NCBI RefSeq assembly: GCF_000427425.1
Contig: NZ_KE386494.1
Span: 928,524-992,523 of the forward strand
Direction: 5' to 3'
Source of the DNA: Caldanaerobius polysaccharolyticus DSM 13641
GTDB taxonomy: Bacteria; Bacillota; Thermoanaerobacteria; Thermoanaerobacterales; Caldanaerobiaceae
Length of the DNA stretch: 64,000 nucleotides
Made by a program: the position numbers and the translations under genes. The notes beneath the pieces were generated by a model that was not told where the DNA came from, made no database searches, and saw only the letters and a list, made by a program, of their open reading frames with translations. Numbering within the stretch: the stretch's first letter is position 1; every line of letters begins with the position of its first letter. Positions 17,214 to 49,100 of the stretch are shown here, piece by piece.

Positions 17214-17234
17214 ACTTATAATACGGCTCAGCGT
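17214..17234 (-). repeat. Distal copy of the rlmH 3'-end sequence (att-like)
   Basis: Matches 18749-18769 in 20 of 21 positions in the same orientation. Read on the minus strand it would encode AEPYYK-stop-like codons, resembling the RlmH tail AEPYHK. Similarity stops abruptly on both sides. It lies in the 354-base gene-free stretch 17136-17489, which otherwise holds only the promoter of the toxin gene. Confidence 0.7.
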
Positions 17235-17410
17235 ATCACTCAATACCTCAAACTCAATTACGAGTATACATTCTCAATTTAATTACACTTTTCCTATAAG
17301 AATTTCATAAGATTCTTACTAGAAGTTCATAATTAAACAAATACCTGCACCGTTTCCCTGCCGAACTGCATATGGAATTATAGCAATCATTATAAAAAAT
17401 ATAAATAGTA

Positions 17411-17439
17411 TTGAGAGATAGGATAATGGCACTTATAAT
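17411..17439 (+). promoter_or_regulatory. Promoter of the PemK/MazF-type gene
   Basis: TTGAGA (17411-17416), 17-bp spacer, TATAAT (17434-17439), with GGGAGGGGGTG just before the ATG at 17490. Confidence 0.7.
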
Positions 17440-17489
17440 TTTATATAATGAGAATATCTTAAAATCATTCAGGGAGGGGGTGACATATT

Positions 17490-18069
17490 ATGGATAATAA
17501 GGAGCAACCCGAAATAACACTGCTTTTATCCGATATAGCAAAGCTATTAGAAAAAATAAAATCACAAATAACGAAACCTAATAAAATTGAGAAAATATGG
17601 CTTGAACATTTGGTTTTGGGTAAAAAGATACTGGAATGGTCGCTGAAAAAGTACCGCATATTTTTTAAGGGAACTCCAGATGTAGTCAAGAAAGGGTACA
17701 TATTCTTTTGTGAGCTTGGTTTTAATATTGGAAGCGAACAAAACCACAAACGCCCAGTAATAGTTTTACAAAACGATAAAGGTAACAGCAGTTCGCCAAC
17801 CACTATTGTGGCTCCAATCACTACACACCGAGGGATGACAGTTTTAATATTTGGATGATCAAGGCAATGAATGCTATAAGAAATTGGACTATTATGAGAT
17901 ACCAGTTGAAATCATGCCTGGCTACAAAAAAGAAATCACTGGATACATAAATCTTGCTCAAATAAGGACCATAAGTAAGAAAAGACACGAAAAGTCACAT
18001 GTTGCAATTATAAATGAAAGAACATTTAACAAAATAAAGCCTGCTCTGTTGCAATTGCTTGATATGTAA
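17490..18069 (+). pseudogene. PemK/MazF-family mRNA interferase, frameshifted
   Basis: The first frame (17490-17858) carries an unusual 65-residue helical N-terminal extension and then the PemK/MazF core: KKGYIFFCELGFNIGSEQ, HKRPVIVLQND and SSPTTIVAPITTHRG. The second frame (17851-18069) continues with DDQGNECYKKLDYYEIPVEI, GYINLAQIRTISKKRH and a tail INERTFNKIKPALLQLL. Removing one T at 17850-17852 would join the two frames. Members are ribosome-independent RNases neutralised by a small antitoxin; no antitoxin gene is visible next to it. Loss of the toxin by frameshift without an antitoxin would be harmless. Confidence 0.8.
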
Positions 18070-18144
18070 ACGATCAATAAGTTTCTTCAGCTGGCTTGAC
18101 ATATTGGCAAAAAGGTTTTAAAATATAATTGTTACAACAGATAT

Positions 18145-18322
18145 CGTTCTAAATGCTATTTAGAACGTTTTCAACTTTTACAGCCAGTATGCTATACTGG
18201 CTAAAATCATCTGTATGGTGTAAATCTATAAACTTTCGCATAATATATAGTACAACTATTATCGCATTGGACGCTGTCCAGTGCATTCTCAATCTTTTGT
18301 GGGATACCATTAGGGTATCCCA
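18145..18322 (+). repeat. Row of four near-perfect hairpins, three with a GCT loop
   Basis: Hairpin 1: CGTTCTAAAT / ATTTAGAACG (18145-18167), loop GCT. Hairpin 2: AGCCAGTAT / ATACTGGCT (18182-18202), loop GCT. Hairpin 3: GCATTGGAC / GTCCAGTGC (18264-18284), loop GCT, one T-G pair that is a wobble only in plus-strand RNA. Hairpin 4: TGGGATACC / GGTATCCCA (18300-18322), loop ATTAG. Stems differ in sequence while the loop is kept. This lies in the 677-base gap 18070-18746, the rest of which is the broken gene downstream. Confidence 0.7.
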
Positions 18323-18325
18323 TAG

Positions 18326-18740
18326 TCATGTAGGCTTCGTCGGTATCCACCGCCAGACAAACCGTTGGTTATTCAAACCAATCTCTTCAAAAAAGAATGC
18401 TAACTGTTCGTTTTGCGTCATTTTATAAGCGTCTGATATTTTACGAATCATCCTATCTCCGTATTTTTGCCCTTGTAATTTGGGGACAATGATTCTCATA
18501 CCATCTTCGATTAGTTCATCAAACTACTTATGTTTCTGTGCAGTTAATGTTAAAATAGTGCTCAAGTTTTTGTACAAATTGCTGCCTTTCCTCTGATTTT
18601 GCTCCACCACTTCTCTCTCCAATGTAAGCTAAAGTTAAATGTCGACTGTGCATTCTGTTTTTCCCACCGTAGGACCAAAACCATTTCGTACTAGCTTGCT
18701 AATGTAGTAACTGTCTAGTACAATCTCGTGTCTATTCTTG
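18326..18740 (-). pseudogene. Decayed unknown gene
   Basis: Three linked reading segments on the minus strand, in different frames: HEIVLDSYYISKLVRNGFGP near 18720-18660, then MHSRHLTLAYIGERSGGAKS and ERQQFVQKLEHYF, then FDELIEDGMRIIVPKLQGQK down to FVWRWIPTKPT and a stop at 18326. A TAG before FDEL could be a mutated CAG. The composition is protein-like, but I do not recognise the family. At least one frameshift and one nonsense change mean it is not functional. Confidence 0.5.
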
Positions 18741-18746
18741 TTTCCC

Positions 18747-19226
18747 TCACTTATGATACGGCTCAGCGTGTATTATCTTGAAACACCTATACAGCTGTTC
18801 TAAAAGTATAAGCCTGAAAAGCTGATGGGGAAAGGTAAATTTTGAAAAGGACAGCCTCATATCGGCACTCTCTATAAGTTGATCCCACAAACCCAATGAA
18901 CCACCTATAATAATGGACAAATCGCTTTTACCAGAAATTATGATGTCATTTAATTTCCGCGCCAACTGCTCTGACGAAAGTTCTTCACCGTTTATGTCTG
19001 TAGCGATCACATAGCTTCCTTTTTTTATCCTGGCTCTTATCCTCTCGCCTTCTACCTGTCTGATCCTCTCCCTTTGGGCGTCAGAAGAATCGTCGGGTAC
19101 CTTCTCATCCGACACTTCAATTATGTTTAACTTACAATAACTAGACAGGCGTTTTTTATACTCCTTAATACCCTCCTGAATATACTTTTCTTTAATCCTA
19201 CCTACCGCAATAACATCTATATTCAT
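18747..19226 (-). CDS. rlmH: 23S rRNA (pseudouridine-1915-N3)-methyltransferase
   Basis: 159-residue SPOUT-class methyltransferase acting on the 70S ribosome at helix 69. The full family length is present: MNIDVIAVGRIKEKYIQEGI at the start, SAM-binding IIIGGSLGLWD near residue 105, SKFTFPHQLFRLILLEQLYR, and the invariant tail HAEPYHK. The last codons form the sequence known as the SCC attachment site in staphylococci, and a near copy lies at 17214-17234. The start ATG at 19226 has no nearby ribosome site; GGAGGG is about 28 bases upstream, separated by a hairpin. It is the last gene of the wal operon. Confidence 0.97.
   Translation of the reverse strand: MNIDVIAVGRIKEKYIQEGIKEYKKRLSSYCKLNIIEVSDEKVPDDSSDAQRERIRQVEGERIRARIKKGSYVIATDINGEELSSEQLARKLNDIIISGKSDLSIIIGGSLGLWDQLIESADMRLSFSKFTFPHQLFRLILLEQLYRCFKIIHAEPYHK
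18749..18769 (-). repeat. rlmH 3'-end att-like sequence (proximal copy)
   Basis: Last codons of rlmH. 20 of 21 bases equal those at 17214-17234, and the flanking bases do not match. The distance between copies is 1535 bp. Confidence 0.7.
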
Positions 19227-44523: not shown

Positions 44524-45879
44524 TTAATAAGCTACTTTCTCTTTTTCATACTGCCATCCATCCACGTACTGCAATAACCTTACGTACCTATATGAAATTC
44601 CCTGACATATACGATTCCCTTTGCTGTCTTTGATATCAAAATACCCGCTGGCGCGTACTGCCACTCTACCTCTCCATGTGCCTTTATATTTCCCTGAAAG
44701 AACTTCAGCTTCCACTATATCGCCCGTTTGAAATCCGAAGTGTCTCTTTTTCCTCTGCCTGTGACTTATCGGAAATCCGTACTTATCTGTATTGCACATT
44801 TTACGGTTGCCTCTGCCCACTGCCGTCCATATCTCTGTATACTTCGTCTTTATCTTGATTGTTTTTGGCGTGCTGGCACCCACGCAGCAAGCATCAAAAT
44901 AGTGGGCCTTGGGAAATCCGTGCTCTATCCTCTGCTTCTTCGTCCTTGCACCCGTACCGCATTCTACCGGCAATCCTGTACGCTTCAGTCTCTCGTACAG
45001 TGTCCATCTCGTTGCATTCATCATTGCTGCATCCTTCAGCGGTTTCTTCAGGTTCGCAAGCACCTTCAGCAGGTTCTCCGCTCGCACCCGATCAATTTTT
45101 CGTTTCGATTTTTGCAGTTCCTCAAGCCATTCTTCGGGTTGCTTATTCCCTTTGTCTTTGTTGCACCTTTCGCACGAAATCGTGAGATTGGAAACTCTGT
45201 TCGTGCCTTTCGGTCCGTGTTTTGGGTTTCTGGGTACCACATGCTCTATCTGCAAGGGCACGTTCTCGGTACCGCAGTATGCACATTTCCTGCCGTATTT
45301 CTCTAACAGGTACTCTCTTATTTCGTATCCGTACAGTTCGCCCTGCTGGTACTCAATTCCGCTGATTTCAGGGTTCTGCATGAGCTGGGTATCGAATTTG
45401 ACATGCTCCGTGCTTATCGATGTGATGGGCAGCCATTTCATCAGTTTCTCTGCTGCCCTTACCGTCTCTTCCACTCTCGCTTCCAATGACGGCGGCAGCC
45501 AGCCTTCTTCCCTCCTGCGGTTATCGAATCTCGGCTTTCTGTAACGCGTCTTGTGGTTCCTCCTTCCACGTCTTAATACCCTTCTGCTGTCAAGTCTGTC
45601 TTTTATCCCCTGCTTGTGATGAATTTCTCCCATTATTATTGCTGCTGATTTTTCAGCACTCTCTTCTCTCAACAAGGAAAAACCTGTTGTTTTGCTTCCC
45701 GGATCGAATTTCAACCTTAACGGTTGGAAGTTACTCTCTTCTGCCGTTCTATCTTTCAGGCGGATAACAAAGGGCATTAATCTATGCACCACCGCTCTGC
45801 CACTTTGCAGCAGTTTTCTTGCGCGTTTCTCCGTGCACGGCATGAGCGGTTTTTTCTTTTTATCCAGGACGAAAACCAT
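44524..45879 (-). CDS. iscB: RNA-guided nuclease IscB
   Basis: 451-residue IscB. The PLMP domain is at the N-terminus (KKPLMPCTEKRARKLLQSGR). RuvC-I has LKFDPGSKTTGFSL (Asp), then the Arg-rich bridge helix (RRVLRRGRRNHKTRYRKPRF), RuvC-II ISTEHVKFD (Glu), HNH with zinc (CAYCGTENVPLQIEHVVPRN, TISCERCNKDKG) and RuvC-III PKAHYFDACCVG (Asp). All catalytic residues are present, so the nuclease should be active. ATG at 45879 was chosen since GGAGGA lies upstream and it directly precedes PLMP; a frame to 45957 is part of the omega-RNA. It is an ancestor-type relative of Cas9. Confidence 0.95.
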   Translation of the reverse strand: MVFVLDKKKKPLMPCTEKRARKLLQSGRAVVHRLMPFVIRLKDRTAEESNFQPLRLKFDPGSKTTGFSLLREESAEKSAAIIMGEIHHKQGIKDRLDSRRVLRRGRRNHKTRYRKPRFDNRRREEGWLPPSLEARVEETVRAAEKLMKWLPITSISTEHVKFDTQLMQNPEISGIEYQQGELYGYEIREYLLEKYGRKCAYCGTENVPLQIEHVVPRNPKHGPKGTNRVSNLTISCERCNKDKGNKQPEEWLEELQKSKRKIDRVRAENLLKVLANLKKPLKDAAMMNATRWTLYERLKRTGLPVECGTGARTKKQRIEHGFPKAHYFDACCVGASTPKTIKIKTKYTEIWTAVGRGNRKMCNTDKYGFPISHRQRKKRHFGFQTGDIVEAEVLSGKYKGTWRGRVAVRASGYFDIKDSKGNRICQGISYRYVRLLQYVDGWQYEKEKVAY

Positions 45880-45884
45880 TCTTC

Positions 45885-46176
45885 CTCCTCTCCTTTCGGA
45901 GCCCCTTACGGGGCTGGTGACGCCGCAGATTGCCGATCTGCAGTCTTCCCTCGCCAATGTTGGAAGGGGTTTAGCTCACAGCGCACCGCTCGCTGCACCC
46001 CTGCTCGCTTTTAACGCTGTGCCACAGGGCAGAAGACTGGGAATGCATCTTAAGGTGTGCGCCCTTCCAACGTAGTGCCTTCATCGTTCCGGCTGAACTC
46101 CAGCACTCAGGCTGGTCATAGGTCTGGCTGAGCTGCAGGGGCTTGTCTCACAAGCCCCTGGCTTTAGCCATGGGGT
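45885..46176 (-). ncRNA. Predicted omega-RNA of IscB
   Basis: Just under 300 structured bases directly before iscB. It begins with the end hairpin CCCCATGGCTAAAGCCAGGG, has a second stem GGGGCTTGT/ACAAGCCCC (46140-46160) and ends with GCCCCGTAAGGGGC beside the iscB ribosome site. In IscB systems the guide is the sequence flanking this 5' end, here the last bases of brxC (about 46176-46195, reading ATAATAAGGTCATAGA). Confidence 0.8.
46152..46175. repeat. Left-end hairpin of the IscB element
   Basis: Same 24 bases and orientation as 44487-44510. It abuts the brxC stop (TAG, 46179-46177), and forms the 5' stem of the omega-RNA. Confidence 0.85.
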
Positions 46177-49100
46177 CTATGACCTTATTATTATCCTCAC
46201 CTTACTCACATCTTTGCCAAATACCAGGCTGTCGATATACCTTTCAAATTTCTTCTTGATCTCATCCACAGTACACGGCCCATCGCCGGCGATATACGTC
46301 TTTATATCAGAAACAGATACTTCCACCTTTTCTAGACCCTTCATGAGGTCATTTACGGCCGAAATAAACACATTGTCTATCCTATCAGGCAATTTGCGGG
46401 TAGACAAAAACTGTTGAATGGACTTTCGCTGATCTATACTCAAATATTTTATATTCTCTGCCAGCTGCAGCATGGGGTCCTCGATGTTATTCAGAAGCGT
46501 TTTAGTCCAACTCTCGTAAACCTCTTCGATCTTATCTTCTACATAGTCAAGTACACCATATACAGGCTGTTCGCTATCTGAAAAATTATAACCGCAGTGA
46601 GGACACATAGAATTGTCCTCCATATCTGATCGTTTCAAGCTGTAACACGTCTTCAATGCAGCCAGCCTATCTTGTACTTCTTTAAGTTCAAAAACGGGCA
46701 GTATGTTGTTTTCGTCCTCTATAGTCGCAAGTTTATTTAGGTTATTCAGTATGTCACTGCGCATTATCTTTTTCTTGCGCCCATCTTCGTTTATGTCCAA
46801 CCTGTATTTTCTGTGCATATCCATATACATTTTTACATATTCCTCTTTGAGATTTCTTAACTCTGCTACAACCTGTTTTAACGCGCTATCATCCCCTTTT
46901 GTATTATTCAGCAGCTCTTCTACCTTTGCTTTAGATTCATTCATTTTATTAACCATCTCAGTTGCCCAATCTTTGTCTTTTAACAACAATTCAGCAGAAG
47001 AAAGATAACTGGTATAAGGCCCTACTTTCTCTTTGATACTTTTTAACCTTTCTACTTCTTTCATAACTTTTATTCCAGCATTTTGCCTTGATATATCCTC
47101 TTCCCTGTATCTAAAATTCTTTAATTTACCAGCTGTATTGTAAACCCTTAAGGAATCCAGAAAGTTACCTAAATTATTTAGCACCTCTTTGTACTCTTTC
47201 TTTTTGTCTGCATCAATCACAGGTTTCCCCCATATAACTGCATCGCTAACAGCAAATTGCTTTACTACGTTTAAATCTTCTATTATCTCATCTATCCTAA
47301 TAAGCATATTTCTAATAGCTTCGTCCCTGGAGTTGGGATTGGTTATCTGGCCTGGCGGCAACCCGAGAAATTCAAAAAGCTTTTTGAGTTCCTTTACAGG
47401 CATATCTTTGGGCCTCTCGATGTGCTTAAACTTCACCAGATCGGCAGGATTCATGTTCGCCAACTGTACCAACATAGTAGCGTCGTATTTTGTATTGCTG
47501 CCTTCCAATGTCAGTGTAATATCACCGGTATAGACCAGCGAACAGAGGACCAACACTACCCATTCAGGCTCCAGCTTGAATTTTTTGTCTAAGGAATCCC
47601 CATACACATCCTCCATTATATCGTCATAAGTCAATACCTTCCCTGGTGGCAATTTATCCAACAAATCCAGATAATACTGAGCATACATAGAATCAGATGG
47701 TGATATAATGTCCCCATCCAGTAATTCCAGAGATGCCAGTATTTTGGCGCCGTGTTCAGTTTTTTTCCCTGCCAGATAATTAATTGCCGCTTTAAACATA
47801 TCCTCTAAATTGGTTTCTGTAATAGATACGGCAAAGGAAGGATAATCAGGATATTTATCACTAAAATACGACGATAAACACACTGATGCGGTCATATCCA
47901 CATAATCCTTAAGGGTCTTATCTCCTGTCATTCTGCTTTTTATCCATTGAAATATGCTTCTGCTTTCCCCTCTATATCTGACCATGAAGCAATCATTCAT
48001 ATTGTCCCTTATCCATTTCAACGCATTTTTCATATACTCATTGGCTTTAGTCAAGTATATTTGTTTTTCTTCGCTTGACGCTCCTGTATGCAATGACATA
48101 GCTGCAGCGTATTTCTTTATATTATCATCGATTATTTCATCCCTGTTGACAAATTCAAAGAAAACCTCGTCACGCTGTGCTTCATATTCATCTATATTAA
48201 AATATTTATCCCCATAGGGTTTAAGGAAATATATATAGAAATCCCTGGGAGGCTGGGCAGTAGTCCTCTCATTAGGTGAACCCATAAAAAGATAGCCATA
48301 TCTTGCAACCTTTTTCTCTTCCCACATAAGTTCATACTGCCATATCCTATGGTCTCTAACGTATTGAGGAGAATTCCAGTCCAGTGCCTTTATAAGGATA
48401 TCGTAATAGCCATTGTTAAAGGCATCATCATCCAGCATCTCGGCTTTGCTCTGTATTTTGACATTATAATCTATGCCCACTTTTTCCATATCCAGATAAT
48501 ACTGCTGATTTTGTGAGTTATACGTTATGAATTGACCGTTGGATGTCTTGATTATTTCCTTCATTATAGTTTGTATAGTGGACACAAGAAAATCCTCTTC
48601 CAGCTCAGGGGATGGTATGTAAATACAAAGATCATCTTTCATATTTTCTACGGTTATACCTATGGGCTCATGAATATCTCCTGTAGTAAGCCTGTGAACG
48701 CTTAACGCGTATATGATCCTCAAGGCAGCGGGTTTATAAATGGGTTTTGTAAAGGAATGCTGGATTATATCTTCCAATACTCCGCTCTTATCTGCCACTG
48801 TTTTTATATTGGGCTCTGTCCTCATCGCCCTGTCTTCTTTGATAAATTTCCAGTAAGCATCATAGGATATTAGGCCAGGTTGATCTTCAGGCACATCTTT
48901 ATCCAGCATCTCTCTCATCAACTGAGTTACTACCTTCAAAACCTCCCGTTTTTCCACCATATATATTTTCTCAAAGACCTCAATAAAAGCCGGATGTATA
49001 GGATAAAGGTCTACGTATTCCTCTAATCTTGAAATCATATTTTTATAAAGGGAGCTGAATTTTTCTAAATGATGCCTTATCCACGCCTTTTGCCTGTCAT

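What the first reader, a model, noticed from the sequence alone, without database searches (positions are those of the whole stretch)
18145..18322. Four hairpins in a row with different stems, three sharing a GCT loop
Seen: stems of 10, 9, 9 and 9 bp, nearly perfect, at 18145-18167, 18182-18202, 18264-18284 and 18300-18322. The stems differ but three loops read GCT, so structure and loop rather than sequence seem kept. The one mismatch is a G-U wobble only in plus-strand RNA. They lie between the toxin gene and a dead gene in the rlmH segment. Inference: a small structured RNA, an antitoxin RNA for the PemK-fold toxin, or recombination/replication sites of the element.
Basis: partly seen in the sequence, partly recalled or inferred. 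Interest (0 to 1): 0.66.

Follow-up and report, generated by a model that had tools for sequence, protein, structure and literature searches.

The report
Paired T-shaped RNA beside a toxin
The four hairpins are real and turn out to be two copies of a previously undescribed T-shaped RNA-like fold with its own predicted promoter, sitting beside a broken bacterial toxin gene in the scar of a mobile cassette; what the fold does is not known, though a role as an RNA partner of a toxin is plausible.

Summary
The hairpins exist exactly as described and exceed chance (0 of 3000 local shuffles gave four; RNA fold z -6.0). They are better read as two tandem units, 18132-18223 and 18251-18332. Between the units 5 of 9 pairs of the first arm change on both sides, while the unpaired flanks stay alike. 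A near-consensus promoter (TTGACA-17-TAAAAT, 11 of 12) ends 7 bases before unit 1. A relative (Clostridia MAG, contig DULG01000027.1) keeps the promoter and both units downstream of the same PemK gene. A third genome of the class has one unit after dapF. No other copy was found in the whole class (37 genomes), about 800 further genomes of the phylum, an exact-pattern scan of 85,000 species, phages, plasmids or Rfam. Best reading: a small structured non-coding RNA of an rlmH (SCC/ECC-like) cassette scar, possibly an RNA partner of the adjacent RNase toxin. The antitoxin role is not shown: distant PemK relatives lack the hairpins, and the third genome has the unit without PemK.

The parts
17217..17236 (.). 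Distal direct repeat of the rlmH 3' end (att-like; minus strand reads ...YAEPYYK*, core TATTATAA)
   Evidence: core motif compared with TATCATAA in PMC6222049
17411..17439 (+). Promoter-like site of the toxin gene, TTGAGA-17-TATAAT (11 of 12)
17490..18069 (+). PemK/MazF-fold toxin gene with about 65 extra N-terminal residues, frame-broken (17490-17858 and 17851-18069); lacks about 29 bases present in the relative
   Evidence: Pfam PF02452 in both halves; alignment with L017
18096..18124 (+). Promoter-like site for the RNA, TTGACA-17-TAAAAT (11 of 12); chance within a 5-base slot about 8e-5; kept in L017
18132..18223 (+). Unit 1: three-way junction; foot helix 18132-18142 with 18209-18214 and 18219-18223
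18145..18167 (+). Unit 1, first arm (H1)
18182..18202 (+). Unit 1, second arm (H2)
18251..18332 (+). Unit 2: same architecture; foot helix 18251-18258 with 18323-18326 and 18329-18332
18264..18284 (+). Unit 2, first arm (H3)
18300..18322 (+). Unit 2, second arm (H4)
18370..18526 (-). Fragment of a HEPN-like gene (the 'dead gene'), 96% identical in DNA to the open gene in L017
18751..18771 (.). Proximal direct repeat inside the rlmH 3' end (minus strand ...HAEPYHK*, core TATCATAA)

Best explanation
The four hairpins form the core of a small non-coding RNA transcribed on the plus strand from its own promoter at 18096-18124. The RNA begins at the foot of unit 1 and contains two tandem three-way-junction domains of about 80-90 nt, 18132-18223 and 18251-18332. 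It travels as a two-gene block (PemK-type RNase toxin gene followed by the RNA gene) inside an SCC/ECC-like cassette at the 3' end of rlmH, of which only a scar with a broken toxin gene remains here. Most likely the RNA folds into T-shaped domains that are bound by a protein of the cassette, the neighbouring RNase toxin being the first candidate, so that it would act as an RNA antitoxin or decoy. Shown: the hairpins, the tandem units, covariation, the foot helix, the promoter-like sequence and co-conservation with PemK in one relative. Inferred: transcription, protein binding and the antitoxin role.
For: Hairpins exceed chance. Units 1 and 2 keep their flanks but change arm 1 by compensatory changes: 5 pairs with changes on both sides in A3, covariation score 0.64 against 0.34 shuffled, 0 of 500; slid controls at most 0.20. 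Foot helix: shuffle p 0.002, 0.0075 and 0.0245 in three units, with a G-C to A-U exchange in L017; three units fold independently to the same junction. Stems change less than non-stem bases between the window and L017, 4/73 against 20/124, p=0.04. A promoter-like site (11/12) ends 7 bases before the foot, chance about 8e-5, kept in L017. The L017 homology runs from the att-like repeat through PemK to H4. The G-U pairs are pairs only on the plus strand.
Against: No transcript data. Only five units in three genomes. In G032 the unit has no PemK nearby, no promoter, and a T9 run inside it that would stop transcription before the foot helix is complete. Unit 2 of L017 lacks the 3' strand of the foot, and the lowest-energy fold of window unit 2 does not use the foot. 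PemK relatives with about 50% identity have no such hairpins. Both toxin copies carry frame-breaking indels, so any present antitoxin function is doubtful. No terminator follows H4 in the window.
Confidence: 0.38

Rival explanations
1. A 3'-end element: the hairpins cap or stabilise the 3' end of the upstream mRNA (PemK or dapF) or act as an intrinsic terminator.
For: In all three genomes the unit lies just downstream of, and on the same strand as, a gene; in G032 the second hairpin is followed by T9.
Against: No T-run after any hairpin on the plus strand in the window or in L017; a strong promoter-like site lies between PemK and the hairpins; a terminator needs neither the kept UACAAC/UAUCG/UCAA flanks nor two copies with a foot helix.
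Confidence: 0.22
2. A small mobile palindromic DNA element (REP/MITE-like) that was copied into the toxin locus and behind dapF.
For: One-unit homology between the window and G032 stops at the unit's edges in unrelated contexts, and other family members lack it behind dapF.
Against: One locus only in each genome; arm sequences differ between tandem copies by compensatory changes; no target duplication or transposase seen.
Confidence: 0.18
3. A single-stranded DNA site for recombination, replication or transfer of the cassette.
For: The T-shaped fold also forms as DNA; it lies inside an rlmH cassette; the T9 run in G032 would be harmless in DNA.
Against: Lies away from the att-like repeats; the G032 copy is not at rlmH; a promoter-like site is placed at its foot; no relaxase, Rep or recombinase gene in the segment.
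Confidence: 0.1
4. Antitoxin or regulator RNA for the HEPN-like protein of the cassette rather than for PemK, as RCd22 is for AbiF.
For: HEPN-like gene and RNA occur in the same cassette in both genomes; AbiF/RCd22 is a tandem-hairpin RNA antitoxin of a HEPN toxin (PMC12373285).
Against: In L017 the HEPN gene is on the other side of PemK and divergent; no abiF motif match; the HEPN_Apea match is below the curated cut-off.
Confidence: 0.1
5. Chance cluster of hairpins.
For: AT-rich intergenic DNA; short two-arm palindromes are common in it (22 hairpins of at least 9 bp in the window against 9.4 in shuffles).
Against: 0 of 3000 local shuffles, covariation, independent refolding in three genomes.
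Confidence: 0.02

Closest known systems
Type III toxin-antitoxin systems (ToxIN, CptIN, TenpIN)
   Same: A MazF-fold RNase toxin gene next to a repeated structured RNA.
   Different: RNA is downstream of the toxin with its own promoter-like site; units are three-way junctions of 80-90 nt with different stem sequences; the toxin matches PemK (PF02452), not the ToxN family.
AbiF/RCd22 RNA antitoxin (abiF motif, Rfam RF03085)
   Same: Small RNA from its own promoter with two tandem hairpin motifs of differing sequence beside an RNase toxin in Clostridia; a HEPN-like gene belongs to the same cassette here.
   Different: No abiF motif match; RNA lies behind PemK, not before a HEPN gene; each unit has two arms and a foot.
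SCC/ECC cassettes at rlmH
   Same: Direct repeats of the rlmH 3' end with core TATCATAA; variable cargo.
   Different: 1.5 kb scar without recombinase genes; distal repeat reads TATTATAA; in a clostridial genome.
REP/MITE-type palindromic elements and intrinsic terminators
   Same: Short perfect hairpins in intergenic DNA.
   Different: Tandem units with compensatory stem changes, a foot helix and a promoter-like site; not dispersed.

Membership tests
Type III toxin-antitoxin | Toxin of the ToxN/CptN/TenpN families | tested here: not met
   Pfam gives only PemK_toxin PF02452; nearest solved chains are EndoA/MazF
Type III toxin-antitoxin | Repeated RNA encoded next to the toxin | tested here: met
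   Two tandem units behind PemK in two genomes; in type III systems the RNA is before the toxin
Type III toxin-antitoxin | RNA neutralises the toxin by direct binding | not testable with these tools
   needs expression and binding assays
abiF RNA (RF03085) or any Rfam family | Covariance-model match | tested here: not met
   No match at gathering in the region; at E<=10 only chance hits far below cut-off, best RefA9 19.8 bits against 49
Intrinsic terminator | Hairpin followed by a T-run on the transcribed strand | tested here: not met
   Not met in the window; met only for the single unit in G032
Dispersed palindromic element (REP/MITE) | Many copies in a genome | tested here: not met
   One locus per genome
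SCC/ECC cassette | Insertion at the rlmH 3' end between direct repeats with the TATCATAA core | tested here: met
   18751-18771 carries TATCATAA; 17217-17236 carries TATTATAA, one base off
SCC/ECC cassette | ccrAB-type serine recombinases in the element | tested here: not met
   No such gene between the repeats; two PF07508 proteins lie on another contig, not examined further

The most novel reading that the evidence does not exclude
A new RNA-antitoxin type: a PemK/MazF-family RNase controlled not by a protein but by a downstream RNA of two tandem three-way junctions with its own promoter, carried by rlmH cassettes in Clostridia.
Probability: 0.22. Interest if true: 0.75.

Novelty: new variant of a known kind. 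Interest (0 to 1): 0.47.

Why it matters
If the RNA acts, it adds an undescribed structured RNA with a T-shaped, tandem architecture to mobile cassettes, and could show that PemK/MazF-family toxins, thought to be held by protein antitoxins, can be paired with RNA. It also extends rlmH cassettes to a clostridial genome.

Tried and rejected
Rfam (RefA9, Plastid-psbM, SCARNA7 and ARRPOF hits are chance). DNA pattern scans of GTDB and IMG/VR: only the L017 contig is real, all others lack pairing or lie in coding DNA. blastn in phages and plasmids: nothing. Weak BLAST hits in G007, G014, G021, G023 and weak model hits in G005, G008 are chance. PemK tblastn in phages and plasmids gave only remote PemK genes. 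A hammerhead core, an integron attC reading and an IS200/IS605 end reading were considered from memory and dropped: the core sequence, att core sites or an extruded T in the stem are not seen. Processive antitermination (put-like) was dropped because no gene follows the RNA in L017. A MAFFT alignment of whole units misaligned H2 and H4, so the model R1 covers only leader, first arm and linker, and the foot helix was tested by script.

Full report
Observation. The four hairpins are present at the stated coordinates with the stated stems and loops. Four hairpins of at least 9 bp in 286 bases were not reached in 3000 dinucleotide shuffles, and the strand folds far better than shuffles (RNA z -6.0, DNA z -7.8).

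Anatomy. The hairpins are two copies of one unit. Aligned in register, leader (TACAAC..WTATCG), loop and linker (TYTCAAY) agree in 24 of 35 unpaired columns, while only 7 of 18 stem columns agree. The first arm keeps pairing by compensatory changes: over the five known units 5 of 9 pairs have changes on both sides, 95.6% of cells are paired, and sliding the partner by 1-3 columns drops this to 29-44%. The second arms (H2 and H4) share almost no sequence but both pair perfectly. A further helix closes each unit: in unit 1 UUACA-ACAGAU (18132-18142) pairs with AUCUGU (18209-18214) and UGUAA (18219-18223); in unit 2 UACA-ACUA (18251-18258) pairs with UAGU (18323-18326) and UGUA (18329-18332). Against shuffled flanks the chance is 0.002 and 0.0075, and 0.0245 in the third genome. 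In L017 one G-C pair of the foot is A-U. Folding unit 1 of the window, unit 1 of L017 and the unit of G032 alone gives the same three-way junction each time; window unit 2 alone prefers to extend H4 on the plus strand.

Relatives. A Clostridia MAG contig (G009:C2 = DULG01000027.1; L017, L046) carries the same block at 88% identity, from the att-like TCAGCRTATCAC through PemK and both units, ending right after H4. There stems changed less than the rest (4/73 against 20/124, p=0.04), and PemK differences fall mostly on third codon positions (7, 2, 22). G032 of another family has one unit directly after the dapF stop codon, absent behind dapF in those relatives whose downstream DNA was read. The covariance model R1 finds nothing else in all 37 genomes of the class, 398 genomes drawn from the phylum, and 59 and 399 genomes of two other classes of the phylum (strict filters, so weak relatives could be missed). 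Scans of GTDB, IMG/VR, phages and plasmids add nothing. Rfam has no such family.

Transcription. A site TTGACA-17-TAAAAT (18096-18124) ends 7 bases before the foot of unit 1; a site of at least 11 of 12 falls in a 5-base slot by chance with probability about 8e-5. It is kept in L017. The toxin gene has its own site TTGAGA-17-TATAAT. No promoter-like site precedes unit 2 or the G032 unit. G-U pairs (H3 in the window, H2 in L017) are pairs only on the plus strand. This is sequence evidence; no transcript was seen.

Setting. The block lies between direct repeats of the rlmH 3' end (17217-17236 and 18751-18771). The proximal one carries TATCATAA, the core of SCCmec and ECC att sites (PMC6222049); the distal one reads TATTATAA. 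No recombinase gene lies between them. The 'dead gene' 18370-18526 is a fragment of a 495-residue HEPN-like gene, open in L017 but on the other side of PemK. The toxin is a PemK/MazF family protein with about 65 extra N-terminal residues, broken here by a missing stretch of about 29 bases; the L017 copy also differs by an indel near its 3' end.

Mechanism. The toxin gene and the RNA gene move together and no antitoxin ORF was seen beside the toxin, so an RNA partner of the toxin is the leading guess, as in type III systems and AbiF/RCd22 (PMC12373285). Against it: PemK genes of this kind elsewhere have no such RNA, and G032 has the unit without PemK. I put about 0.22 on the antitoxin role for PemK and about 0.6 on a functional RNA of some kind. 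From memory, EndoA-type MazF enzymes cut at UACA-containing sites; every unit has UACA at its foot, in a helix. This is a lead only.

Verdict. It is a candidate new structured RNA with good structural but thin phylogenetic support.

Noticed in passing
17217-18771: SCC/ECC-like insertion scar at the 3' end of rlmH in a clostridial genome: direct repeats CTTAT[AG]ATACGGCTCAGCGT, one with the TATCATAA core and one with TATTATAA.
   Followed up: partly
44524-46183 (-): HEARO RNA (RF02033, 110.6 bits) directly before a 477-residue ORF with an HNH motif, an IscB/IsrB-like pair, between a methylase-like and a large ATPase-like gene.
   Followed up: no
L017:364-3897 (+): 1177-residue protein matching the PADLOC model Upx (E 1.6e-47) with a C-terminal NERD-like part, near the PemK-RNA block: possibly a defence island.
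   Followed up: no
18326-18369 and 18527-18750: Further gene debris of unknown origin beside the HEPN fragment (frames reading e.g. YIGERSGGAKSEERQQFVQKLEHYF); Pfam finds nothing.
   Followed up: partly
L017:5812-6378 (-): The relative's PemK gene also seems frame-shifted near its 3' end, so both sequenced copies of this toxin look damaged while the hairpins are intact.
   Followed up: partly
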